NCBI GenBank assembly: GCA_027627225.1
Contig: CM051032.1
Span: 63,872,637-63,936,636, forward strand
DNA from: Congeria kusceri
Lineage: Eukaryota; Mollusca; Bivalvia; Myida; Dreissenidae
DNA: 64,000 bases
Direction: 5' to 3'
The notes beneath the pieces are model-generated. The model was not told where the DNA came from. It saw nothing but the letters and a program-made list of their open reading frames with translations, and ran no database searches. Below, in pieces: positions 3,601-39,600 of this stretch; the stretch's first letter is position 1, and every line of letters begins with the position of its first letter. The translations under genes were made by a program, and so were the position numbers.

Positions 3601-6600
3601 AGGCGTGTCGTGGGAAAAATGGGTTTAATGCACATGTGTAGTGTCATCCCGGATTAACCTATGCAGTCTGCACAGGCTGATCCAGGACAACACTTTCCGC
3701 TTTTATTATATTTTCTGTTTCAAGGAAGTCTCTTCTAAACATAAATCTACTGAAGGCAGAAAACATCATCCCGGATTAACATGTGCGAACGGCTAAACCC
3801 GGGTTGCCCATGACACGCCTCAAATTAATTTAGCAAAGAGAAGGACTTAAGGAGAAGGAAATACTACTCCATACCTGTGTCTTGGTCTGCCACGAGGTCG
3901 GTGGTGCTGTCCACACGGTTGGTCTGGCTACGTCCCAGCAGTGACAGCTTCTTCTTGCGCTTGAAACTCAGTCGGGTCACGTTCCTAGCAAGTCTGCCAC
4001 CTGTCAAAGATGTATAGCACCGAATTGTAAATTTAATTTCCACCATGAATCAAACATGTGATAAAATTGAGACTGCAGCTTTTCATATACTTGATTGTGC
4101 TATTTATATATAAAAAACAACAATCGGGTCACGTTCATTGCAAGTGTTCCACAGATGCAAATGACTGTATGATAATGGTCTTCTGATTCCATTTCAATTT
4201 TCAAAATATTGATGTGACACTGCAGCTATTAAAATACTTTCTTTTGAGCAATCTAATTCACAAATTAAATGGTAAAAATGCAAGTCAAAATATTCATTAA
4301 CTTCTCACCGTCTGCCATTTCTTCCAATTTGTTGCGAGTGATTTCATCAGAATCATCATAATTCTCTTCTGCCACTTTCAAGAATACCTGAAAAAATAAT
4401 TAGCTTGAATCAAACAAATTAAAAATAACATTTATACCTCCAGCAAACAATATTGCAAAGAAAAATGTAAGTAAAAAAAAATTAAAAATTATATGCTTAA
4501 ATAGATACAGCAACAAAAGGCATCAATGAGTAACAAATGAACGAAGGATAGTTTGTGTTTAAAATCCACTAACTAATAACAAATGAACGAAGGATAGTTT
4601 GTGTTTAAAATTCACTAATAAAATGTTTAAATAAACTAAGCACTTTTAATAGTATTTATTGCTGTTATTATCCCTGTCCATTAGTGTTTAGGCATAGTTC
4701 AGGTCTTACCATGATAACATACATATAGCCCAATGCTTTATCACATCACCATGCGTTCATTGATGAACATTATTTTGAATGATTTAAGATGAGGTGCGTC
4801 AAGGGAAAACCTGACTAATCCGGGACGACACTTTACGCACATGCATTAAGTCCGGTTTTCCCACGACGCGCCTCATATGTTATTTTTACAAAAAGGACAG
4901 AAAATGATCGGATAAATACTAGGTAATTCATTCATCACTAGCCTAGTATTCTCCATTTTCACAAAAACATAAAACTTCATCCATACCTCTTCCAAACTGG
5001 TATCAGAAATTCCGAAGCTAGATACGCCCAGGTTGTCATGTGACCTCTCCAATTCCAAGAAGAGACGTTCAAAGTCGCCCCGTCGCGCTGCCTCGTCTGG
5101 CAGCTGGTAACTCAGCTCGGTCACATTATCCTCCACAAGCTTTGCTTCGGGAACGTATTTCTTTACAAACGAGGTCACTTTCTTCACAGAGAAGCCTGAA
5201 AAAATACCAATAAAGTACAGAATATATCCCATATCGCTAAATGACTCCACCAACTTTGCTTTGGGAACATACTTCTTTACAATGAGGTCTTCACAGAGAA
5301 TCCTGAAAAATAAGAATTTAGTACAGAATATCACCGGATAATCCCGTGTATAATTAAATGACTCCACAAGCTTCCCTTCTGAGATGTATTTCTTTACAAA
5401 TGAGGTCACTTTCTGTACAGAGTAGCCTGAGCATTTACCAATGAAGTACAGAATATATATCCCGTACATAATGACACTCATTTTTGCAATGTACAATGTT
5501 ACAAATTATATTTTATACATCATCAATTACAAACTGTGTCAGCACATACAGTATTTAATAATGATCAAATAATATTCTACGCAAATGAATGCTTGAGGTA
5601 GCAGTGGTGTAATGGATATGGTGTCCGCCTTGTGATCGGAGATCGTGAGTTTGATCCTATTCTGGAAGCGTTTGAAGGGTCTTTCTTAAGGCATCAAGTA
5701 CTGGTTCTACCCAGGAAAAGGATTCGAAAATGTCTCAGTAAACCTATGACTTGCGACACAATCAAGCTAAAATAAATAAGTTTAAACTAAACAAAACAAG
5801 AATTGTCACATGAGTGACCGATATACCCCCATAATATGGCCTTGTCAGAAAACTATGGCATCCATTTGAAAGAAATGGACACAATGAGAATGCTTTAATT
5901 TGTGAATGTTTAAGAGTGTATTTGGAAAAATTTAATTTCAATAGGAGCCATAACTCTGTCAACATTTAGTGGTTTGTAACCAAAGTCGAACCTGACCTGC
6001 ATTTTATGGTGTTACACCTACCTGGTATGTGCCAAAAATAATTTAAATATGACGAGCCTTTCATTAGTTATTGTCCTGAAAGGGAATTTTAGTCAAAAAA
6101 GAAGCCATAACTCAGTCAAAATTTAGTGGTTTGTAACCAAAGTAGAACTCGACCTGTATTTTATGCTGCTACATATGTGTACCAAAAATTATTTGAATAT
6201 GTCAAGCCATTCTTGTGTCATCGTCCAGAAACCATGCTTTTAGGGAATTTAAGTCCAAAATGGGCCATAACTCTGTCAAAATTTAGTGGTTTGTAACCAA
6301 AGTCGAATTTGATTTGTATTTTATGATGCTACAAATGTGTACCAAGAATTATTTGAATATGTCAAGCCATTCTTGAGTTATCATCCGGAAACCAGAAAAC
6401 CAACAGACCGACAAGCTCACTCCTATATACCCCCTCCAAACTTCGTAGGGGTATAACCAAACAACAAATTAAACAAACCAAACAGTGTGTTTTGTACAAA
6501 TGTATAAACATGCAAGATGTACACAGACACGGATGCCCCTACCACACGTTTGGACATGACAAAAGGCATGTCGTAAACACAAGAGCTGTCGGACGATCCC

Positions 6601-18600: not shown

Positions 18601-21600
18601 AATTAGGTTGTCCGGACAGTCGGACTACCGTTAATGTCGAGCCCTGCTTACAGACATATTTACATGTCCATCCCTGGGTAAAACCAGTACATGGTGTCGT
18701 TTTGAAGATCACCTTGCCACTGTGTGTAAACACCATACCTGGAGCCCGCCCTGAATGCCAAATGTATTTGAGGCATGTCGTGAGAAAACCGGGCTATATG
18801 CATGTGCGTAAAGTGTTGTCCCGGATCAGCTTGTTCAGTCCAACAGGCTGATCTGGGACGACACTTTCTGCTTTTATGGTATTTTCTGTTTCAAGGGAGT
18901 CTCTTCTAAACATAAATCCACTGTAGACGGAAAGTGTCATCCCAGATTAGCCTGTGCAGACTGCACAGGCTAATCTGGGACGACACTTTACGCACATGCA
19001 TTAAGACCAGTTTTCCAATTATACGCATTATTTCATGTTATGTAGAAAATACTATTGAATGATAACGTGATCACTGCACTCCAATAACATATAGTTTAGT
19101 GTTTATGACGCAAAAAGTAAGGCACTATTTTCCCACTATAACAATTGGTGAAATCAACAAATATCCTATATATCACACTTATTACACAATTGTGACCTTC
19201 TTCTACCTCAAGAACTATACTTTTAATAAGGGACTCTACAAGTCTGTATAAAAATATAGTGATTATCATAAAATAAAACCATCCATATACTTTAGGTAAG
19301 CCAGTATATTTTTTAAATAAAATTATAATACATGTTGAGAAAAACTTATGGTTAGAAATGCATATCAAAAGAGAAATTTAAGACTAAAATAATTTTCTAC
19401 TGCACAGTAAAAAATTATAGCACATGTATGTACAGCATCTCGACAAGTCAGACCAATTGTTCGTGCATTCGCATTCTTATTGTCCTAATTCAAAACCGAA
19501 CATAGCCATTGGTGTAGGATAAAAGGGTCTTTATCGTCAGAAAATATTTTCGTTATTTTTCGTTGAAGTTTTTTATGTTACATAAAACTGTATTTGAGTA
19601 GAACAGAGACTTTCAAATAAAGGTATAAAAATCAGACAGTCCCAGTTTAAACCATGTGATAACAAGACTTATGTCAACAGGTGGTCCGTACCTCGTGGGT
19701 TTAGGTTGGTCATGCCCAGCTGATTGTCAGACCTGTCGTGGTTAGACCCTCCAGTCCCGCACCAGTACGACTTGGTGAACGGGAAGTAGAACGGCTTAGG
19801 AATTCCGTACTGACCTGGCAAACAGAATTCGTCACAAGGTAATTGTTGCATTCAATAATTAAATAATAGAATGTTAAAAATGCCATACTGACGTAGAAGA
19901 TGAATAAGACACAAAGTAATTGCGACATTCAATATTTAAATAACTGAATGGCTTCAAAATCCTATATTGACCCATAATAATATAAACTGTGTATCATCAA
20001 CTATTTAAATAAGTCAGTTAAAACAACATAAAATAAACTCATCAATACAACTCATTTTCTTGATGATGAAAACCTGAATTGTAATTTAATAGGTCTACCC
20101 AAGTACTTTCTTAACATACAATGTAACTTACAGATATTACTTTTTTAATCAAGGATTTTTTGTCATGAACCATACATGTTTTTTTGTTTTTGTTTTTCAA
20201 CTAGAACTTATCAATTTCTATACCGTATTGATATTATGTAGAAAATGTATCAGACGTCCTGAAGAAAATCCACAGAACAATTCCCATGTGCTGATATTGA
20301 TATGTCCGTCAGAACCCCTGACGGTAAATTTACATATTCTGCTACAGAATTTTCAATGATTTAATTATAGATAATGATAAAACACTAATCTTGGGAAAGA
20401 TCTAGGATCAGAAAAGGTACCCGGTGCTGCTAAAAAGAAAAAAATTATATAAGTTCTTTGAAATTTTCTAACAAATTTTGTTCTGGTTTTTTCCCCTACT
20501 ACACTGTAACTCCATTATATTGCGATTCCCGGGGTCCACGGATCGTGATCGCGATATATCCGGATCACGATATAACTTGCTAGGCCATTCAGTAGATATA
20601 GATGTATACATTAGCCTGTTTTTCCCCGATCTCAAACATAAATGTAATTAAGTAAATAACTCACCCTTTTCAATGTAGTTAACATCCATTATGTATTAAA
20701 TCCACATGTAAAATATTCCATTTGTATATGAAAATATAATATTATTCCTTTAATTCTGTTGAATTAATTTCAAATCGCGTATAAAAAATATAAAGTCCGA
20801 AACGCCTATCTGAATTTCACTATTCATGTGAAGTAAACATAAATTCTATTAACAATTACAACACACATGTATTTCGTGTCAACTCTTTGTTCTGTTAGAA
20901 AAAGCGCGCGAAAAATTGCTGACACAAAGGACATTGTCATGGGTGGCACGCGCGCTGTTAGCTGATGACGTCAAACTGTTACACTTTGATGTTAAGCGAG
21001 TCGGCGTATTGTTTGTCGCACTACAAGAGTGTGAATAAAAGAGACGCCGTGAAGGCACAAAAATCCTGATCAGACTGGATTTATTTATGAGCATTTGGTA
21101 ATAGGAAAATATTGAAGTACATGAAAAAAATTGGGATCCAAGGCCGATTCGCGATATACTGGACATCGCGATATAACGGATCGCGATACAGCGGATCTGC
21201 ACTGTACTCTACACAAGAACAATTAACACAAACCTGGGAAGACGGCCTCAATGTACCAAGTCAGAAGCCCATAAAGGATCATGTCAATGATCATCATCGT
21301 GATGCAGTGGATCATGTTGAAGTCGTCATCGTTGACGGGACTGATTCCCATGTTGCTCCACTGAAGACCGATCGCCTGCTCCTCCCACAGTGCGATGAAG
21401 TTACAGCCATATCCAAATGCCACGTTGGATGACAGGCCCTGAATAAGTGATGAAGTTACAGCCATATCCAAATGCCACGTTGGATGACAGGCCCTGAATA
21501 AGTGATGCATGGATGATCATTTATCGATTAGCTGTAAGTAAACATTTTTCGATGGCGAGTATCGATGTGACATTTACAAAATCGATCATCGTATTAGACG

Positions 21601-24600: not shown

Positions 24601-27600
24601 CTGTTTTTAGATCGTACATACACACTTCAACAACAGAAGGATTGTAAAATCTCAAGCAAAAATTAAAATAACATATAAAACAGTGTTGTTGTTTTCAGAA
24701 AAAAGTTACATACCAGGAATGACTTTGGTATTAACAAAAGCTCAGAAAGATATTCTTAGTCATTCACAAAGTCGAAAACTTAACTTAAATTGCATTTTAA
24801 AATATGAAGTTTTAATTGGATTCAAAATTTTGGAATAAAACAGGTATTACAACAAAAACCAAAAGTAAGCTGGTTTTACTTGTGATATAAATATTATATT
24901 TATTAAATAGTTGTTGTTGGGTCCGGCTGGCTCAGTTGGTAGAGCGCTAGACTATCAATCTGGGGATCATGAGTTCGAACCCCAGCCCAGCCACATAACT
25001 TGTGTGGGGATTGGTCATGAAATTGTTTGTATGGCCATTCTCCCCCTACCTCTGATTCAAGTAGGGCAGCTGTCTGTTACTGGCATAGATATGTGCACTT
25101 AGTAATGGTAAACCGCTTAGATCGGCTAAGCTTGCCCAGGAAAAGTGTGAGTAGGTTAACTGACCGCTGTGATATGACTGAAATACTGTTAAAAACGGCG
25201 AAAAATCCAAACAAACAAACGATTAAATAGTTGTCCACTTCTAAGGTTATGGTCTTACCCTATTTCTAAACTTGTTCTAACACAACTTACCACAGCCATT
25301 TTAACTTTTCTCGTAAGAACATCGTCAAACTGTAACATCAACATGTACGGGAGGTAACCCAGAAAATATATAAAACCGGCGCAGCATGCAGCGAGGTTCG
25401 GGCGCGAGAAGAAAACGCTGATGAGGAAGCAGAAGACGATCGTCACGGTTGTAAACAACGTCAGGAAAAACAGCACCGCAGACGGGTCCGAATGCTCCAG
25501 GACTTGACCAGTCTGAAATAAAATAATACAAAAATTCATGATAATACTGCAGAGAATAATAGTGATGTAAGCAAGCTATAATAAAACTAAACTATAAAAG
25601 TATTATGACAAGTATATTAAATATGATATTGCCTTTCACTATAATTGAACGCTACATAAATGTCAAAAACACTTCTCTTGTCACACATACAACACTAAGT
25701 GTAAAACTATCATCAACAGCATGTAAAATATAAGGGCTGTTCCAGGAAAAAAGGTGATGAGGTGGTGGAACGCTGATGTATTAAAATTTGGTGGGTGGGG
25801 GTGATAGAGAGGATAAAACGGATTATAAATTTTCAAACTGGCGTTCCGCCCCCCCCTTTACCTTTTCCTGGAGCAGCCCTGAGATGTAAATGCAATGTTG
25901 AGGCATCGAAAATAAATGTGTACATGCTGTTTCGAATATATCGAGTAGATTACAAGCTACAACGTCCACCCCTGACAACCATTATTACCAATATAATATA
26001 AAATAAACTTGATAGTGTTCTTTGCAAATAAACATTTGCACCATAACTTCTTTAGACAATGTGTTCTTATAAGATTTTTGTATCCAGATTTTAACTGTAC
26101 CTACCCACAAACATACAATAAGACGTAAAAAAAATAAAAAGTTTGTTTCAGGTTACCCGACCTACCCTAAAAACAATGCCCGACCCTAAAACACTTTTTT
26201 GTTTATTTTACTTTTTTACAATAATTAAATGTTTTGTTTTGATAGCTTCCACTTCAAAACAATGTTTTATGATATTAGAGACATGTTTTCAATATTCTTT
26301 CAGTTTTAGAATCGTCAAATTGACCATTTACCAAATAAAAAATAATAATAAACAAGAAGGGCCCTAGGACGCTCACCTGAGACCTTGTAACCCAATTGGA
26401 ATTTGCATTCCAGAGGCATGGCTTATTTTTATCTCAGGGGCAGAAGTTGAACAACTTGAACAAACTTCTGGGCTTTGCGGTTTCAGGTAAAGATTTTTTA
26501 AGTCATTTTGCTATTTAAGTCTATATAAACTATGTGACCCCTCACGGGGTGGCCAGATTTGACCCCAGGGGCATAATTTCAACAATCTTTGGAGAGGACC
26601 ACTATGCAATGTTACATACCAAATATAGGAAAGCTGTGGGCCTTGCGGTTTCAGGTACAGATTTTTTAACTCATTTTGCTATTTAAGTCTATATAAACCA
26701 TGTGACCCCTCGGGGGTGGCCAGATTTGACCCCAGGGGTATAATTTGAACAATCTTTGGAGAGGACCACTATGCAATGTTACGTAACAAATATAGGAAAG
26801 CTGTGGGCCTTGCCGTTTCAGAGGAGAAGATTTTTAAAGTCATTTTGCTATTTAAGTCTATATAAACCATGAGACCCCCGAGGCGTGGCCAGTTTTGACC
26901 CCTGGGGCATAATTTGAACACTCTTTGTAAAGGACCACTATACAATGTTACACACCAAATATGAAACCTCTAGGCCTTGCGGTTTCATAGGAGAAGAATT
27001 TTAAAGTCATTTTGCTATTTAAGTCTATATTAACCATGTGACCAATCGGGTGTGGTCTGTTTTGACCCTATGGGGCATAATTTGAACAATCTTTGTAGAG
27101 TACCACTATAGGATGTGAAATACAAAATACGAAACCTCTGGGCCTTGCGGTTTCAGAGAAGCAGATTTTAAGACGTTTTGCTATATAAGTTTATATAAAC
27201 CATGTGACCCCCTCGGCGTGGCCAGTTTTGACCCCGGGGGCATAATTTGAACAATCTTTGTAGAGGACCACTATAGGATGTTACATACCAAATATGAAAC
27301 CTCTGGGCCTTGTGGTTTCAGAGGAGAAGATTTTTAAAGTCATTTTGCTATATATTCTATATAAACCATGTGATCCCGGGGTGTGGCCCGTTTTGACCCT
27401 AGCGGCATACTTTGAACAAACTTTGTTCAGGACCACTAAACAATGTTACATACCAAATATGAAACCTCTGGGCCTTGCGATTTCAGAGGAGGATTTTAAA
27501 AGTCATTTTGCTATATATTCTATATAAACCATGAGACCCCCGGGGGCGTGGCCAGTTATGACCCCATGGGCATAATTTGAACAATCTTTGTAGAGGACCA

Positions 27601-30600
27601 CTATAGGGTGTTACATACCAAATATGAAACCTCTGAGCCCTGTGGTTTCAGAGGAGAAGAGTTTTAAAGTAATTTTGCTATATATTCTATATAAACCATG
27701 AGACCCCCGGGGGCGTGGCCAGTTGACCCCATGGGCATAATTTGAACAATCTTTGTAAAGGACCACTAAAGGATGTTACATACCAAATATGAAACCTCTG
27801 GGCCTTGCGGTTTCAGAGGAGAAGATTTTTAAAGTCATTTTGCTATATATTCTATATAAACCATGTGACCCCCGGGGGAGTAGCCCATTTTGACCCCAGG
27901 GGCAAAATTAGAACAATCTTTGTAGAGGACCTCTAGAGGATGTCACATATCAAATATGAAAGGTCTGAGCCTTGCGGTTTCATAGAAGAAGATTTTTAAA
28001 GTTTTCATTTTTTAAATCTATTTTTAGCTCTGGTGACCTGCATATTCAGCGGATCGGAAAGATTTGAACAACTTTGAAAGAGGTCCACTCAAGGATCATT
28101 GCTGTGAAGTTTTGGTGAAAATCTGCCAAGCGGTTTAGGAGGAGATGTTGTTGGAATGAAAAGTTGACGACGCACGCACACACACACGCATGCATGCACA
28201 CACGCACGACGGACAACGGGCAATCACAAAATCTGACCATGAGCACTTTTTGCTCAGGTGAGCTAAAAACAATAATACCCTACCTATCTACCCTAATTTT
28301 TGGGGGCATGTAACCTGAAACTAACATAATTTTTTTTTACGCCTAAGGTAAAACCATTACCTTGAGTATATTCATAAGCAGCCAGTTGGCTTACATACAA
28401 ACAACACAGTAAAACCTGGGCTCGAATTCACCAACCCTTTCTTTGACATAAGACATAAGAATAAAGAATATTCTTGAAACTGTTCTGTTCTAAGTAGTAT
28501 GTTTATTTAAATCTTACTAGGTATTTACCAATGATAATTACAGCATTATTTATTTAGAACAACTTATCAATGACATAAGCGACTCTGGTACCCAGCATAT
28601 TTGCGAACACACACATTTTATTCTTGAGTCTAAGTCTGGGGCCATATTCCAGAAACATCTTCAGTTTATCTTAAAATATATTCACTTAAGTTCCAATTTG
28701 TGTAAGATGATTTTTTAAAATCTTCATATAACTTAATGATTCCAATTACAGTTAAGTAAAAAGTAGTCAATTATAATTTGATAATTAATTAACACTTGGC
28801 AGAATTTCATGCATACGTGGAATAAATACCTTAAGAAAAGTGATGATTTTAAGGCTACGGATAAGATTTCATTTAAGATGTTTCTGTTCTGTATTCTTAA
28901 GTCTAAGAATGGGTTCGTGAATACGTACCCAGTACATGATTAAACCAGTACCTTGAGTATAATCACCAGCAGCAGGTTGGTCAGGAACATTATTACGAAG
29001 GCGTTGATAAACCACGCCATCCAGTGCACGCCGTTACCGAGGCCCATAATCTTCATGATCTCCTTGAGACGCCGATCCTTCTCGTAGACGATACTCTTGC
29101 ACAACATGGCCGTCGTGAGAATCCACGCCAAGATCATGAATAGCGGTAACATTCTCGATATGGCGTTGATAAAACTGAAATTGTAGTTCAGGACAATTCT
29201 AAGGACTTTATTGATATTGCATAGGTTACAAGGCTAGAGTTTTTAGTTTTAGTTTTAATACCCATAAAGAAATCAACATTTGTGGAAATATATGACTTTT
29301 CATTAGAGGAAATATGAGTTTTATAAATATTTGGTGTATTATATATACAATATTGACTTTGTCTCAATTTTCTTTTAAATTTAACAAAAATTGGGTCAGC
29401 AGATTCAAGAAACTACAAGGCTAGAGTTTTTATTTTTAGTTTCTCGGACATGTCTGGACATCTGTCCAGTCGGAAGGCAAAAAAAAAAAAAAAAAAAAAA
29501 AAAATGGAATATAAACACATTTTTTCGCAATATACCGGGGTACATGCGACAATAACCAAAATATTTCAATGAAATGTTTGTTATGTGCACATGCATATCA
29601 AATCAACATGATTTAGTAGTACATATTAATATCCATTTCACATTATATTAAAGAGTTGAAAAAAAATCAACATTTGTGGAAATATATGAGTTTTCATTTG
29701 AGAGAATATGAGTTTTATCAATATTTGGTGTATTATATATACAATATTGGTTTTGTCTCAATTTTCTTTTTAATTTAACAAAAATTGGGTCAGCAGATTC
29801 GAGAAACGAAAAATCTACAAACTCTGACCTAAGTTTATTGATTTGGTGTACATGAACCTGGAATATTTCAGGAAATGTTTATGCACCTATCAATATATTC
29901 CCCCAGGGGGGAAGCGGCGGGCTGTCCCAGGGGAATTTGACAAATTTTATTTGTTGGGGTCTAATTCCCCATCCTAGAGTCAAGCATATTTGTTAAATCC
30001 CCTAAATGGGAGATGCTATGCCTATCAAATGGCCCAGGGGCCTGTATTACCAGGATCTATAATCCAACCAGTCTATTACCCCCTGACCCAGAATCCTTCG
30101 GAATGTCAAATTCCCGCCTGTCAGGAATCGCTTTCAGTCTGCCCACCGCTCCCCCCCCCTGGGGGAAAACATTGATCGGTGCATTATTATCATCTATATT
30201 TATGTATATCTTAAGATATGTTTTGAAAGAGAAATACAAATTTAGACTAACAATTTTGAACTAACTTTTTATGACAAGAATTCCTTATTAAATAAAGATA
30301 TGCACAGTATGTTCTTTAAACAAACTGTTATAGTTTGTTACATAACTTTATGTGCAACTAATATTTAAATGTTCATGCTAAAACTGCATTTAAAATTTTT
30401 GAAATTTCGAATCTATTATATCATATTTAGTTAGCCAACAAGCTTATTTTAACAATACCAAGTGAAAAAGGTCAATTGTAATTATGTATGCATATTGATC
30501 ATTTTACCAATAAATACATGTATACATCACTGTCCACATTAATTTCTGTCCTTTAAATATATGTTTAATTGTTTGTCGTAAAGATAAGTTCAGCGTGTAC

Positions 30601-33600
30601 TTTATATTATCAGAGACATGTATGTTACAAAATACAAATTAGCTTATTCCTCGGTTAATCAGTGATTATAATCTTGACAGAGTAAAAATAAATCCATATC
30701 ATGTCAATCTCAGCTGCTTTTTTAAATTTGATATTATGCATGATATACAACTTAATACACTGCAGATCCGTTATATCGCGATTCGCATGGATCGAGATCG
30801 TGATATAGCCGGAGTGCGATTTAACTTGTCGGCTCATTCATGTACATATAGATATACATATATTCACTAGCCTATGTTCACGATCTCTAATAGTAATTAA
30901 CTCACCTTTTTCATTGTTGTTAACATCCACAATGTGTTACATGTATATCCATATATAAAATATTCCACTTATATAAAAAATTATAATATTATTACTTATA
31001 ATTAATTTCAAATTGCGTAGAATAAAATGCAAAGCCAAAACGCCTATCCGAATGTTACAGTTCACATGATGTAAACACGATTTCTATTTACAATTAAACT
31101 GCACGTGTATTTCGAGTAAATCCTTTGTTCTCCTAAAAATAGCGCGAAAATGATGCTGACATGTACAACGTCACGTCATCCGCATGGAAAGCGTGGGTGT
31201 ATTGCTTGTCGTATAAAAACTTTGTAGCGCAGAGAACATTGAGATCTTTACTTTTTTATAAAAGTTTTGTAGCGCATAAAAACTAAATTGGGTATCAATA
31301 TTGCAAACGATGTGCAGTTAGCATTTCCTCTTAAACAAAAAAGAAACAGTTACGCCGTATCGATAACATTATTGTCGTTCAGATAGGTCAGTATTGATCT
31401 ATGAAATACAGTTACTGTAAACACCCTACACGTGGACGGCATGTACATCGGCTGCTAATTACAGCGACAGCAGTGAAAGGCCGTTGTCATGGGTGGCACG
31501 CGCAATTTAAGCTGACGATGTCAAACTGTTACACTTTAATGTTGAGCGGGTCGGGTTATTGTTTTTCGCACTACCAAGGTGTGAATGAAATAGTAGGCAG
31601 CAATGTAGGCACAAAAAACCGGACCAAACTGGATTTATTTTTGAACGTCGTGTAATAGTAAAATATTGAGTACATGAAAAACAACGGGATCCACGGTCAA
31701 TATGCGATATATTGGATATCGCGAAATAACGGATCGCGATATAACAAATCTGCAGTGTATGCACTATACTCTGCTGAATATAGCATCATTAGCGAAAGAA
31801 GAAGCTAAGAAGATTTAAGAAAATGTAAGTAATTAAAGAATAAAGTTACAATATTATAAAACAATACGATGTAAGTGATGCAATAACCTTTAAAAGAAGA
31901 AGCAAATATTAGGCCATCCTTAAAAAATTGTTTGTTTGCGGTAACATGACCGACTCCCGAAATTGGGCCCGACTCACAAGCTTTTATAGGTGTCCGTGAA
32001 TTTTTTTTCCTATTCGAAATATCTGTTATATATTCCTCATATTTTGTTCGTGTTATATATTCCTCATATTTTGTTCGTAATTAATTCATAACGTTTTTAT
32101 ATTAACTAAACACTGCATTCTAATAACCTTGCAATAATATTTCCAATTTGAACAAAGAATATACACTAAGCAATGTGTTTTGCTCTTGTATTTTGTGTTT
32201 AGACAATTTGTTACCGCAAACAAACAATTTTTTAAGGATTGCCTTATTTTCCAATAGACATACATGTACACTACAAAGGATTTAACAGGCAAGAACTGTC
32301 TTGACCTCTACATCATACTGATAGCATTAAAGGGACTTCTTCACAGATTTTCGTATTTTTAAAAGAATGCCATTTAATTTCTGCAAAAACTTAAGCAGTT
32401 AGACTAGCAAAAACAAATATTATATAAAGAAAATAAAAAATCAATGATTTACCGCTCGGCCATTTGGAATAACGATTATAGCAGTGAATTTTTAGCGCTA
32501 TGTAAGTAAAACACGTGTTTTCCAAAATACAGATGAAAAGAGTTACAAACGCTTAATAATTTTATTCATTTTGATTGATGAATTTTCACAAACAACAATA
32601 TATTTCCAAAACATCTCTTTGCTTGTTTATATATAATTACTGTATATTTCTTTTTGGGACCTATGACAAAATTTTTGAAAATGTCAATTTGACAATCTGT
32701 GAGCAGGTCTACTGTTACCCAGTAATAATTAGTAAGATATATAGGATCTGACATGAGTTGTCATTTCATACTATATATTGTTAAACAAGTTTAGGAATTT
32801 TGTTAGTAAGCGAGCCTTTGGCGAGCTTACTAATGAATTTCCAGGACTATTTTAATAAAATATAGTATGAAATGACGAGTGTTAGATCTTTTTTATCACA
32901 TGCTTTAAAAAAAAAGATGTTTATAAATCCTAAAAGTTGTGTACTGACGAGACGTCATTTCATGTTGACGACGTCATTTTATCAAAATAACGTCATGCGA
33001 TTGTTCAGTCAAAGAATATGCAGCCAATGAAAATGCTCGTAATGTTATCATACATGATGTAGTATACTGCAATATTCTGATTTTGACGATGATTATGATG
33101 ATGATGATGATGATGACAATGATCGTGGCCGTGACTATGACGCCGACGCAGATGCTGAAGACGAAGATGATGGTGTTTTTGATGATGATAAGGGGCGGCG
33201 AAAAAAGGTAACGAAAAATTGGTTTTTATTTTTGTTCGTACTGAAAAAAAAAACGACCTTTACACAGAATTTATATTTACAAAAAATTTCATCAAAACTG
33301 TAAAAAGAGTTTCATGTTGCAAAACATCTGTTTTACCAAGACATCAAACATTCTACTCACTTATCTTCGGTGTAACAAGGGTAAGGAAATTGCTGGGTTA
33401 CGATTCCTACGTCCTGCTTTAGCCCAGTTTGCAATTTAATCACTGCGTGATCAAGCATGTCTTGGATATATACAAAGCCGTAGAGGAAGTATTTGAGATC
33501 GGGCCAGGGGCGTCGCCGCATTCCGGGGCGGGGATACCTGAACAAGAATGGCAGGGGAGATAATACAGATGAGAATGATGATATGTATGGGTGTGAAATT

Positions 33601-36600
33601 GGGGGTCGGAAAGCGTGTTAAGAGACGCCACAGCAGCACTGGGAGGTATGGTTTTCTGTCTCACCTGTCTATGAAGAGCAACTATGTGAAATCAATAAAT
33701 ATGCATGTGCATAGCATCCAGAATTAAATTGTATTTATTTTTTTTATTTTTCTCATTATCTGAAATTACAAGACTATATTTTTGTGTTTGTTAATTTGCT
33801 TTCCAGAATGTTTCGGCCAAAAATTGTGTGTTTTATGAGATGTATGTCTTGTAAATCTATTTGAAGAGTATTGATATGGATACATGCATTTATTGATTTC
33901 ACATACACAACTACTGCCATGAAAATGAGTGAGTTTGCCATGAAAATGAGTGAGTTTGCCATGAAAATGAGTGAGTTTGCCATGAAAATGAGTGAGTTTG
34001 CCATGAAAATGAGTGAGTTTGCCATGAAAATGAGTGAGTTTGCCATGAAAATGAGTGAGTTTGCCATGAAAATGAGTGAGTTTGCCATGAAAATGAGTGA
34101 GTTTGCCATGAAAATGAGTGAGTTTGCCATGAAAATGAGTGAGTTTGCCATGAAAATGAGTGAGTTTGCCATGAAAATGAGTGAGTTTGCCATGAAAATG
34201 AGTGAGTTTGCCATGAAAATGAGTGAGTTTGCCATGAAAATGAGTGAGTTTGCCATGAAAATGAGTGAGTTTGCCATGAAAATGAGTGAGTTTGCCATGA
34301 AAATGAGTGAGTTTGCCATGAAAATGAGTGAGTTTGCCATGAAAATGAGTGAGTTTGCCATGAAAATGAGTGAGTTTGCCATGAAAATGAGTGAGTTTGC
34401 CATGAAAATGAGTGAGTTTGCCATGAAAATGAGTGAGTTTGCCATGAAAATGAGTGAGTTTGCCATGAAAATGAGTGAGTTTGCCATGAAAAACAAACGA
34501 GGAGTGGTAAAACCGAGCTTAATGCAAATGTGCAGTCTGTACAGGCTAATCCAGGATGACACTTCCGCTTTCATGGTATTTTCTGATTCAAGTAAGTCTC
34601 TTCTAAACATTAATCTACAGTAGGTGGAAAGTGTCGTCCTGAATAAGCCTGCGCGGACAGTCGTGGGAAAACCGGGTTTCATGCACGTGCGTAAAGTGCC
34701 TCAAATACAATACTGGCCTTCAGCTGATATGACATTTTGGACAAAACCTATTTTCTTTTACAAGTACCAGACACCAAACCTCAATGCAGAAACACAAACT
34801 CACTTATTGTCAAAGACTGATTAAATAAAACACTACAAAGCAGAAGAAGCGCACAGGTATATTAGTTACACATGTGCCAACACACTGCATATCTGCAGCT
34901 ACACGTCTCATTTCGACATACTTGTCTTCTATGAAACACGGGTAGGGGAATTGTTGGGCAACAATCCCGACCCCCACGTCGATGCTCGTCTGCATCTTGA
35001 TGATGGCATGCTCAACCATGTCTTGTATGTACACAAAGCCATACATGAAATACATCAACTGCCAGGGTTCGCGACTGGGCCCCGGCTTAGGATACCTGTA
35101 ACCATGGTTATTGTTTCAAAAATATTAACAAGAGTTGTTTGTAAAACTGGTACTGTATGCCCACTTTAGGTCCTGAGCAATATTTAAAATATCAAGTTTG
35201 ATGAAGATCCGATGAAACTGTTGCACTTAGATAGAAGAGAGCAGCTAAAAAGGCCAATGTTATATCATTCAAAAGGCCTAAAGGTAATTTGGTCAAGATA
35301 TTACACAAAACATTTTCATCAAGATTTGATGAAACCTGCTTAAAATTCAAAGAAAATGACTTGAATAAGATGATCTTAAGAACAGATTAAAATTTGTTTG
35401 AGATAGAAGCCATTCATTTAAGTTAAAGATCTTTTATTTTACTGTTCATCTGAATTAAAAGTAAGAAATACTATATGAAATTTTCGCATGAATTATTTTG
35501 GCATATTTTGTTGATCAAAAATTTGTAAAAAAACAATACTTTCATAATATTGTGCAGTATTAATAAATTTAACAAAAGTATTTTTGATAAATGTCTTTGG
35601 AGACAACTACCATGGCAATACTAATGGAACAATTATTAATCATACATTTTTATTACAATTTAATAAACATATATGGTTAAACATGTTTTAAAGTTAAATA
35701 CTTCAATTACTATTGTTCAGCCATATATGGACTATCAAAATTAAACACAACACCTGAAAAAGGGAATTGACGGGTATAATTTAAACCAATATATAAACAG
35801 CATGTAAAGGAATCCATCTATCTATCTACCTTTGCACAGCGAATAATTCAACCAAATAATTTTCCGCCTTACATGCATTCCAAGCACAATTATGAATTCT
35901 AAAAAAATTGAAATACTCAGTCGAAAATCAAGGTTTCCAAAGTGCTGCAAAATGGACATCATATTAATATAAACAGCACAACTATAAACAACAGTGAAAA
36001 TGTTCCATGACAGACAATTTTTATGCAGAGGGCACCAAATATAAATCACATGAATATTACCGGTATTTAATCACATAAATTAATGTACATAATTCACATT
36101 CTGTTAAAAACAAATAATTAACAAGAATCTGAACATATTTTACATGGCCAACACTATATGCCCCGCCCCTCTATCATTGATGGTGGGGCATAAAAAGATT
36201 ATTCTTCAAATGTTACCATGGCATTCAACTGTAAAATACATGTCTGCATTTATTACATACACTAATTAATGATAATTTGCCTAACATATGATACAACTTT
36301 ATATTATATAATTATTTATACCCCCCCCCCACAAAGAATGTTCTTGCGGACATTGCATATCTATTAAGTTTTATATGAAATTTGTTATAAAATTTGTGGC
36401 GCGTTGTGGGAAAACCAGTCTTAATGCATGTGCGTAAAGTGTCGTCCCGGATTAGCCTGTTCAGTCTGCACAGGCTAATCCGGTACGACACTTTCCGCCT
36501 ACAGTGAATTTATGTTTAGAAGAAACTTCCTTGAAACAGAAAATACCATACAAGCGGAAAGTGCCATCCTGGATTAGCCTGTGCGGACTGCACAGGCTAA

Positions 36601-39600
36601 TCCGGGACGACAATTTACGCACATGCATTATGTCCGGATTTCCCACGACGTGCCTCATTTATTTTTTAAATCTCAGAATACTGTCACAAGCCTGTCTTGC
36701 TTGACTAAAACAGTAAACATAACCATTCTTGCTAACTTTGCAATTTATGGGGCAAATCAACAGAATTTCTAACAAATATGGATCACAAGTATATTTTTCA
36801 AACAGCAGCAACATATTGATAGAATCATTAAGAAATAACATGTTTACAAAGATAAAAAAATTATTTGGATACATGGTTCAGCAAGATTCAAACTCACATC
36901 TTCATAATTGTGCTCTTCAATGAACATTTCCATATGCTATACAACGTTTATCAATGTCCTTATGCAATTCGCTACCTATCGTTGATATGCCCCTTTAATA
37001 CGTTATTTAATATGAACCAACCGTTAAAAACTTACTTATCCCGAGTTCTTTTGGTAGAGTCCACTTTGTCAACATCCATTCGTATCTTGTATTCAATTTT
37101 CTTTGGCATTGTGCTAGTGGTCAGATCCATTCCTACGAACTCAATGGCTGCCCAAAACAAGTCGTTCTCGATCATTTTTATTCCGTCGTCCATCATCTGC
37201 TTCTCATCTTGGTACGGAATGAACTTGTCAAAGTTGAAACACTGAAATATTGTTTGACATGCATAAACAATTTAATTAACGGTGTTGCTATCATGAGTAT
37301 GTATCAAATTAAGTAATTAAGTATCAATATCTCGAGTCTGGAGAAAGAATACTGAAATATTGGCTCATATCAAAATCATGTATATTAAAATCATGCTAAT
37401 AATGAAATTATGTCTCATAATGAAATAAAGTCACATAATAAAATAACTTCTCATATAAGGATTCTTAAATGAAGTAACCTTGATGTAGACTCTTAAATAA
37501 TGACACTGACTGAAATAGTGTTTCATGTACATACTGAAGTAATTTCTGATATTGAAATAAACGATGTCTAAAAGAGAAATATGGCAATCACACTTTACTG
37601 TATCAATAAATATTCATTTTCAGAAATTTTAAACTATGCAAAACAATTAGTTTACACTATTTTAAGCTATGGAAAACAATTAGTTTACACTATTTTAAGC
37701 TATGGAAAACAATTAGTTTACACTATTTTAAGCTATGCAAAACAATTAGTTTACACTATTTTAAGCTATGGAAAACAATTAGTTTACACTATTTTAAGCT
37801 ATGGAATACTAAGTTTTGTCAGTATGCTTCACATCTGAATAAACCGAGTAATTAAATATTCTCGAAATAGCATTAATTCGTAGTGGACCTTGTGCCTTTA
37901 AATGTGGAAACTAAAACCTTGCCTCAAAAAAGAATCGATGCATCATATTTGTGGTTTCTGAAATAACGACTCTGTGAAAAATGAAACAATGATTTATATA
38001 GGTTGAATCTGAAAATAGGTCCATCATACAAATAATCAAGGATTATATCTTACATCCATGTAGTCGCTGACGTAGCCAAATATCTCGTCTATGAATCCAA
38101 GGGCAACCCTCCAGTCATAACTGGTCATATCGGGACCGTTATCCAGAAACTGTTTCAAGAATAAGCAAGTCGACTCCGCGTTACCTCCTGTTGAATTTGT
38201 GACTCCTGCGGTCTGCATTACACGTTCAGCTAAGCTGACTAACGTTTCACACGTGTTTCCAGAATCAACAAGGCTCTGTTCCAAAACAAATTTAAATAAA
38301 AAGAGATAATTTATACATTTCAAGATACCATATTATTTAGCAGTATATGTAACTTGTAATTAAGCAGTTCTCATGTAACACAATCAATATACCGATATCT
38401 GTGCACATATTACAAACATTTAACATACTTTATTGTTAACAATTATATTATTTATTTAAAAAATACCGAAAAAAAGCATTTTGATAAAATTATAAAACAC
38501 AAGTTTTCTTTTACAAATGTATGAATATGGAAATGTTACATGCACCTCAAATACTACCTTTTTTTCTGACAAACGCAACAGTTCAGTTATGATGTGCAAA
38601 TGACCATTCATACCAGTGCGTATAAGTCTTTAACTGATTTCATCCGCTTATTCTTTAACAACATTTCAAACTCTAAATAACTTACCCGAAGGCCGTTTGT
38701 GAGATCACTGCTGTTCAGGAACGTGTAAACGATGGGGCTATAATCCTCCCAGGCGTCGGCTAGATCTCTCAGGCTTTCAAGGTCGCGGAAAAACTGCTGC
38801 GTCTGGAATCAAAGTGGTTACATTCCACTTTAGACATTCTGACCATAATTGTGTGTTTCACATGTAGATATCCAATCAATGAAAATAATATGAAGCGTGT
38901 CGTGAGAAAACCGGCCTTATTTGCATGTGCGTAAAGTGTGGTCCCCGATTAGCCTGTGGAGTCCGCACAGGCTAATCCAGGACGGCACTTTCCGCTTTTA
39001 TGGTATTTTCTGTTTCAAGGAAGTCTCTTCTAAACATAAATCCACTGTAGGCAGAAAGTGTCGTCCCGGTTTAGCCTGTGCAGTCCGCACTGGCTATTCC
39101 GGCATGACACTACGCAAATTCATTAAGCCCGGTTTTCCCACGACATGCCCCATATACTAAAATATGCATAAGGATCTGAGGACTACCAGTATGGCACCTT
39201 CTGACAACCTTTTAGTCAGCCTATCACAGACTTGACAACCTTTTAGTCAGCCTATCACAGACTTGACAACCTTTTAGTCAGCCTATCACAGACTTGACAA
39301 CCTTTTAGTAAGCCTATCACAGACTTGACAACCTTTTAGTCAGCCTATCACAGACTTGACAACCTTTTAGTCAGCCTATCACAGACTTGACAACATTTTA
39401 GTCAGCCTATCACAGACTTGACAACCTTTTAGTAAGCCTATCACAGACTTGACAACCTTTTAGTCAGCCTATCACAGACTTGACAACCTTTTAGTCAGCC
39501 TATCACAGACTTGACAACCTTTTAGTAAGCCTATCACAGACTTGACAACCTTTTAGTAAGCCTATCACAGACTTGACAACCTTTTAGTCAGCCTATCACA

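What the first reader, a model, noticed from the sequence alone, without database searches (positions are those of the whole stretch)
33361..35095. Two intact alternative versions of the exon just before TM2
Exons 34922-35095 and 33361-33537 encode the same segment of extracellular domain 1, with the same phase (2/2), good splice sites and no stops, but about 40% residue difference. The framework ([16 protein letters not shown]) is kept, while the basic RRRPW stretch and the loop before VGIV differ. This suggests alternative splicing to switch the membrane-proximal gate of a lipid transporter. I do not know of this arrangement in vertebrate ABCA1. All four splice combinations stay in frame.
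Basis: partly seen in the sequence, partly recalled or inferred. Interest (0 to 1): 0.85.

Follow-up and report, generated by a model that had tools for sequence, protein, structure and literature searches.

The report
Swappable lipid-gateway exon in mussel ABCA1
A mussel lipid-pump gene carries two intact, long-diverged versions of the exon that forms the upper part of the pump's lipid entry gate, which suggests that the animal can choose between two gates by splicing, although no RNA reads were available to prove the choice.

Summary
Exon A (34922-35095) and exon B (33361-33537) lie head to tail between the same two exons of an ABCA1-like gene; both are phase 2/2 with GT/AG borders and no stop, and differ in 20 of 58 columns (34%, not 40%). 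The window is from a mussel 89% identical to Dreissena polymorpha over 498 aligned columns. The D. polymorpha isoform X3 model has a B-type exon alone here; representative Mercenaria, Ruditapes and Mya models have an A-type exon. A and B differ at codon positions 1/2/3 by 15/8/39 of 57, so neither looks like a relic. The exon encodes human ABCA1 residues 573-630: 20 of the 29 residues of the published lipid 'gateway' plus the run to TM2. Four positions separate 8 A-type from 3 B-type rows: 581, 584, 585 and 590, all gateway sites where human mutants lose lipid efflux. But the typing rests on those four columns: without them the tree no longer separates the types, and a dreissenid-only duplication is not rejected (p-AU 0.18). 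Best reading: a splice-selected lipid gateway of uncertain age. Use of A in Dreissena, mutual exclusivity and the lipid effect remain unshown.

The parts
34922..35095 (-). Exon 14[27 protein letters not shown]...[12 protein letters not shown]-type gateway exon, one residue shorter; acceptor with a poor pyrimidine tract
33361..33537 (-). Exon 14[28 protein letters not shown]...[12 protein letters not shown]-type gateway exon, the type in the D. polymorpha isoform X3 model
37036..37241 (-). Exon 13, constant upstream neighbour; encodes the residues aligned by eye to 564-572 of the gateway
28952..29174 (-). Exon 15, constant downstream neighbour (TM2 and following). The model ended it at 28967; the match to P0121 runs on to about 28949, which favours the listed donor at 28952 (15 nt later, same phase)
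25291..25512 (-). Exon 16 of the same gene
53756..53821 (-). First coding exon ([22 protein letters not shown]); the gene runs leftward past the window start
33915..34492 (-). 21-bp minisatellite, 27.5 identical copies, in the intron between 14A and 14B; 82 YCAY tetramers on the gene strand in 578 nt (mean of 1269 sliding windows 10.1). Possible Nova/Pasilla binding hub, unproven

Best explanation
This is a pair of tandem-duplicated, functional alternative exons in a dreissenid ABCA1-like gene. Splicing joins exon 13 to 14A or 14B and then to exon 15. Exon 13 supplies the constant lower (capture) part of the lipid gateway; 14A or 14B supplies the upper part (573-592), which hands lipid towards the annulus of the extracellular tunnel, and then the run to TM2. 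A and B differ in loop length (584 absent in A), in charge (581: Glu in A, Arg in B; 585: Gln in A, Asp in B; 587: Met in A, Lys in B) and at 590 (Met or Leu). The likely effect is a change in which lipids are extracted, or how fast, in different tissues or conditions. Shown: two intact exons, constraint on both, a B-type exon in a D. polymorpha model, A-type exons in other clam models, and the map onto gateway residues. Inferred: that one animal makes both transcripts, that one exon is used per transcript, and the change in lipid handling.
For: Both exons are intact with matching phase, borders and flanks. Differences fall 15/8/39 of 57 on codon positions 1/2/3. A copy drifting neutrally for half of the third-position distance showed on average 60 differences at positions 1+2 (0 of 5000 simulations at or below the observed 23) and a stop in 93%. 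P0121, D. polymorpha isoform X3, has a B-type exon and no second copy between exons 13 and 15; it differs from the window's B at 4 of 58 residues (my count). Of 31 segment rows 8 are A-type and 3 B-type, among them P0198 from an unnamed source, whose ends fit the same splice borders. The positions with no residue shared between the types are four: human 581, 584, 585, 590, all in gateway 564-592. In human ABCA1 D581K/E584K/D585K cut cholesterol and phospholipid efflux by 80-85% and F583K/W590E cut cholesterol efflux by 95%, at normal surface expression (passages of PMC9381790). 186 of 206 retrieved proteins carry the segment motif once and 0 carry it twice.
Against: No RNA reads could be examined. 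P0121 is a predicted isoform, and the other 8 members of its 90% cluster are hidden, so use of A in Dreissena is not seen. The count of 206 proteins says little about exclusivity, since most come from animals not known to have both exons. A and B types were named by eye partly from the four positions; when these columns are left out the tree still holds the 11 rows together (99/98) but no longer separates A from B (4% of bootstrap trees). The AU test does not reject a dreissenid-only duplication (p 0.18). Nothing found in the sequence enforces exclusivity. Position 590, Trp in human, is Thr in 16 of 20 other rows, and PMC4156994 notes that Leu is often seen there in alignments, so gateway chemistry in molluscs may differ from human. 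A's acceptor is weak by my simple score (1.0 against 3.0 for B), although exon 12 (0.6) and exon 13 (1.0) are no better.
Confidence: 0.68

Rival explanations
1. Exon A is silent or rarely used in dreissenids, which use B, while other clams use A and have lost or silenced B (reciprocal loss in progress).
For: The D. polymorpha representative has a B-type exon only and the Mercenaria, Ruditapes and Mya representatives an A-type only; A's acceptor has a poor pyrimidine tract; A has private changes at sites mostly kept in the A-type rows (Met at 587, Ser at 579).
Against: A has no stop, intact borders and a third-position-biased difference pattern; drift for a quarter of the divergence gave 23 or fewer differences at positions 1+2 in 0.1% of 5000 simulations and a stop in 88%. 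A recent loss would escape this test.
Confidence: 0.2
2. Both exons are often included together, or both skipped, so the duplication lengthens or shortens the gateway instead of exchanging it.
For: The four combinations keep frame and no passive block was found.
Against: P0121, the one protein at hand from an animal close to the window's, has a single copy; 0 of 206 retrieved proteins have two. Two gateway segments in a row would be expected to harm the fold (inference).
Confidence: 0.07
3. The duplication is limited to dreissenids and kin, not shared with other clams; the A-like gateway of other clams is then parallel. This changes the age, not the function.
For: Not rejected by the AU test: p 0.18 for window A + window B + D. 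polymorpha, 0.24 with P0198 added. Without the four gateway columns the tree does not separate the types.
Against: With these columns the best tree puts window A with the other A rows (A rows 91/73, B rows 97/74; neither starred). The 584 deletion is in 8 of 8 A rows, 0 of 3 B rows and 0 of 20 others. Third positions of A and B are near saturation (39 of 57). P0198, B-type, differs from the window's B in 14 of 59 columns, so B is not only in close Dreissena kin.
Confidence: 0.3
4. Assembly artefact: two haplotypes or a misjoined paralogue placed in one intron.
For: None found; bivalve genomes are often highly heterozygous (general knowledge).
Against: 39 of 57 third positions differ, far beyond allelic difference, and the neighbouring exons match P0121 at one place each.
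Confidence: 0.02

Closest known systems
Tandem duplicated exon substitutions (mutually exclusive exons), among them ABCC9 / Drosophila mrp / C. elegans mrp-1 (PMC9741552: abstract and passages read)
   Same: Adjacent homologous exons of near-equal length and same phase in a membrane transporter, conserved residues kept
   Different: Those ABC cases are in subfamily C; 'abca' occurs 0 times in that paper's main text. Here the swapped part is the extracellular lipid gateway of an ABCA protein, and exclusive use is not shown
NALCN alternative selectivity filters (PMC3557258: abstract read)
   Same: One gene whose alternatively spliced exons swap the substrate-selecting residues; expressed in a snail
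   Different: Ion channel, with isoform expression measured by its authors; here a lipid gateway without expression data
Human ABCA1
   Same: Same transporter family and segment (residues 573-630), aligned at E below 1e-10
   Different: I know of no second copy of this exon in vertebrates (recalled, not searched); human is acidic at 581, 584 and 585, mussel B has Arg, Pro and Asp there, mussel A has Glu, nothing and Gln
Intronic VNTR that affects ABCA7 splicing (PMC5954066: title and abstract start in a listing only)
   Same: A tandem-repeat array in an ABCA intron linked to splicing
   Different: Human ABCA7, no duplicated exons mentioned in the listing; whether the mussel array acts on splicing is unknown

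Membership tests
Tandem-duplicated alternative exon pair | Two adjacent homologous exons between the same constant exons | tested here: met
Tandem-duplicated alternative exon pair | Same phase, in-frame lengths, intact splice borders | tested here: met
Tandem-duplicated alternative exon pair | Both copies under protein-level constraint | tested here: met
   (codon-position counts and a simple neutral simulation, not a codon-model test; dS was saturated)
Tandem-duplicated alternative exon pair | Transcripts carry one copy or the other, not both | tested here: inconclusive
   One D. polymorpha model with a B-type exon only; no RNA from the window's species
Tandem-duplicated alternative exon pair | Tissue- or condition-specific choice | not testable with these tools
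   No expression data
ABCA1-like transporter | Sequence match to ABCA1-like proteins through ECD1, TMD1 and NBD1 | tested here: met
   Pfam accessions listed for P0121 include PF00005 and PF12698; my own Pfam scan failed
ABCA1-like transporter | ATP-driven phospholipid or sterol export | not testable with these tools
   Inferred from the family

The most novel reading that the evidence does not exclude
Some clams evolved a splice-exchangeable lipid gateway in ABCA1: an old exon duplication gave a second gateway whose loop length (584), charge (581, 585) and residue 590 were changed at sites that handle phospholipid in human ABCA1, while the rest of the exon stayed alike. The choice is set by RNA-binding proteins acting on the intron between the exons, perhaps a Nova/Pasilla-type factor on the 82-YCAY array downstream of A.
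Probability: 0.35. Interest if true: 0.78.

Novelty: new variant of a known kind. Interest (0 to 1): 0.62.

Why it matters
How ABCA1 takes up lipid is disputed: extraction through an extracellular gateway, or flipping across the membrane (PMC9381790, abstract). An animal gene that keeps two gateway versions, differing at residues the gateway model names, is a natural swap experiment: the two forms can be expressed side by side and tested for lipid class and rate. It would also extend splice-selected substrate filters, known for ion channels, to a lipid transporter.

Tried and rejected
Own-genome search for other copies of the pair: not answered eight times. Docking/selector RNA pairs: exact complementary stretches of 12 nt or more between the three introns (best 8 per pair of introns printed); 5 between intron 13-A (36460-36582) and intron A-B (34552-34637), which look like copies of one dispersed repeat, 1 between A-B and B-15, none between 13-A and B-15; no conservation could be tested, so no case for competing RNA structure. 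U12-type incompatibility: rejected by reading the donors against a recalled U12 consensus. Too-short intron: rejected (1384 nt). Tandem gene duplication: rejected. Third exon copy: none found. Of six splice-factor motifs counted in the array only YCAY is enriched. Control that went against the reading: the tree without the four type-defining columns does not separate A from B; I therefore raised the dreissenid-only rival and lowered the best explanation and the novel case a little.

Literature: nine searches, most with capped listings (for instance 20 of 74, 20 of 56, 12 of 32,427); no listed title or abstract start describes duplicated alternative exons in an ABCA gene. Six papers were opened, none read whole: passages of PMC4156994, PMC9381790, PMC10792246 and PMC3165201; abstract and passages of PMC9741552; abstract of PMC3557258. 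The library lacks most subscription journals.

The first protein search admitted 737-2345 aa by the stated length rule and so missed the 2495-aa Dreissena protein; it listed 120 of 1569 hits. The second, with a longer query, found it. The 31 tree rows were chosen by hand from 206 proteins plus the two window exons; rows in which my motif search failed (7, 3) and many near-duplicates were left out.
Full report
What is there. The window carries, on the minus strand, the first part of a large ABCA1-like gene. Its first coding exon lies at about 53.8 kb and the gene runs off the left end. D. polymorpha 'phospholipid-transporting ATPase ABCA1-like isoform X3' (P0121, 2495 aa) aligns along it in exon-sized blocks. 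Over 498 aligned columns around the finding, with exon B in place, identity is 89%, so the window is from a relative of D. polymorpha, not that species; a quagga-type Dreissena is my guess and was not tested.

The two exons. Exon 14A (34922-35095, 174 nt) and exon 14B (33361-33537, 177 nt) lie between exon 13 (37036-37241) and exon 15 (from 29174 down), with introns of 1940, 1384 and 4186 nt. Both are phase 2/2, have AG/GT borders and no stop, and read into exon 15 in frame; so do A+B and neither. P0121 matches this segment at two places, B at 92% and A at 60%, and exons 13 and 15-18 at one place each. Each exon alone matches ABCA1 over the same residues. The alignment has 20 differing columns of 58, one of them a gap. 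My model ended exon 15 at 28967; the P0121 match runs about 18 nt further and favours 28952. This does not touch the finding.

Are both alive? Codon positions 1/2/3 differ at 15, 8 and 39 of 57; dS could not be computed because synonymous sites are saturated. In a simple simulation, one copy drifting for half of the third-position distance showed on average 60 differences at positions 1+2, in 0 of 5000 runs 23 or fewer, and a stop in 93% of runs; for a quarter of the distance 0.1% of runs were at or below 23 and 88% had a stop. The model is crude (equal base changes, B as the start) and cannot see a recent loss.

Relatives. Three protein searches listed 120 of 1569, 95 of 95 and 10 of 10 hits, 206 proteins in all. 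P0121 has a B-type segment and no second copy between exons 13 and 15. Mercenaria (P0122), Ruditapes (P0123), P0124 (source 'lgn', unnamed) and Mya (P0001, P0125, P0126) have an A-type segment. Three short reading frames from unnamed ENA sources look like the bare genomic exon, since they begin with the Arg that AG|G would give and end one residue past the donor: P0197 and P0199 are A-type, P0198 is B-type. In a tree of 31 segment rows the 11 A and B rows form one side of a branch (98/90), B rows 97/74 and A rows 91/73 within it, neither starred. The 584 deletion is in 8 of 8 A rows, 0 of 3 B rows and 0 of 20 others; 19 of the 20 others have Asp or Glu at 585. Three cautions. The AU test does not reject a clade of window A, window B and D. 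polymorpha (p 0.18). I named the types by eye, partly from these very columns; without the four columns the tree keeps the 11 rows together (99/98, bootstrap rough) but does not separate A from B (4% of bootstrap trees with one change). And proteins are clustered at 90% identity, so sister isoforms of P0121 (9 members), P0122 (3) and P0125 (3) are hidden. So an origin before these clams split is the simpler reading of the deletion, but it is not established.

Where the exon sits. PMC9381790 (abstract and passages) defines a gateway, residues 564-592 of human ABCA1, that extracts phospholipid from the outer leaflet and passes it to the annulus of the extracellular tunnel. Residue names given there (Y573, W574, D575, R579, D581, F583, E584, D585, R587, W590) match the human segment aligned to these exons, which start at Y573. 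Exon 13 gives 564-572, with Arg at K568 and Asp at D571 (aligned by eye); 14A or 14B gives 573-592 and on to 630. R587W, W590S and Q597R, linked to Tangier disease or low HDL, lie in this segment (passages of PMC4156994). Positions where no A row shares a residue with any B row are four: 581 (E/Q/N versus R), 584 (absent versus P), 585 (Q/H/N/R versus D) and 590 (M versus L). All lie among the 20 gateway residues of this 58-residue exon; four random positions would do so in about 1% of cases (my arithmetic, 4845/424270), a figure weakened by the way the types were named. In human ABCA1, D581K/E584K/D585K reduced cholesterol and phospholipid efflux by 80-85% and F583K/W590E reduced cholesterol efflux by 95% at normal surface level; in PMC10792246 six of seven natural gateway variants tested had reduced function and V589I was normal (passage). 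In the window's copies the net charge of 573-592 is +1 for A and +4 for B (counted by eye). Against a simple transfer from human: 590 is Thr in 16 of 20 other rows, and Leu, as in B, is said to be frequent there (PMC4156994).

How the choice could be made. Frame and intron length leave the four combinations possible, and the donors are not U12-like. In a simple score of my own A's acceptor has 1.0 and B's 3.0, other exons' best acceptors 0.6-3.0, so B looks like the default and A like the exon that needs help. The A-B intron holds 27.5 identical copies of a 21-bp unit, which give 82 YCAY tetramers in 578 nt on the gene strand against a mean of 10.1 in 1269 sliding windows (windows overlapping the array included), and 14.2 per 100 nt against at most 3.0 on that strand in 13 other arrays that I picked from the 52 rows; on the opposite strand one of them reaches 7.8. 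YCAY clusters bind Nova; Nova and its fly orthologue Pasilla enhance an exon when bound downstream and silence it when bound within it or near its splice sites or branch point (passages of PMC3165201). The array begins about 430 nt below A and ends about 380 nt above B, so it could favour A; it is too far from B for the silencing rule to apply directly. The array is identical throughout, hence young, and one unit that happens to hold three YCAYs explains the count. I rate this as an idea only. No competing RNA stem was found.

Judgement. Tandem-duplicated alternative exons are a known kind, also in ABC transporters of subfamily C (PMC9741552, passages). What seems new, as far as nine library searches with capped listings show, is the place: the lipid gateway of an ABCA protein, with the type-defining residues at sites that handle lipid in human ABCA1. 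RNA evidence would settle the main question quickly.

Noticed in passing
21394-21507: A perfect 55-bp tandem duplication spans the acceptor and 5' end of exon 17 (21234-21438), giving a second acceptor 55 nt upstream (21493) that would shift the frame.
   Followed up: partly
5202-5505: Partial copies of the 5' end of the exon at 4975-5202 lie upstream of it (one at 5362-5427 matches P0121 at 77%; another is seen by eye), possibly alternative acceptors or decaying exon pieces.
   Followed up: partly
33915-34492: About 27 perfect 21-bp copies between the two alternative exons; probably variable in length between animals.
   Followed up: partly
36438-36630 and 34552-34637: Sequences that look like copies of one dispersed repeat with inverted-repeat ends lie on both sides of exon A and could pair with each other; similar reading frames recur in the window by eye.
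   Followed up: partly
   Followed up: no
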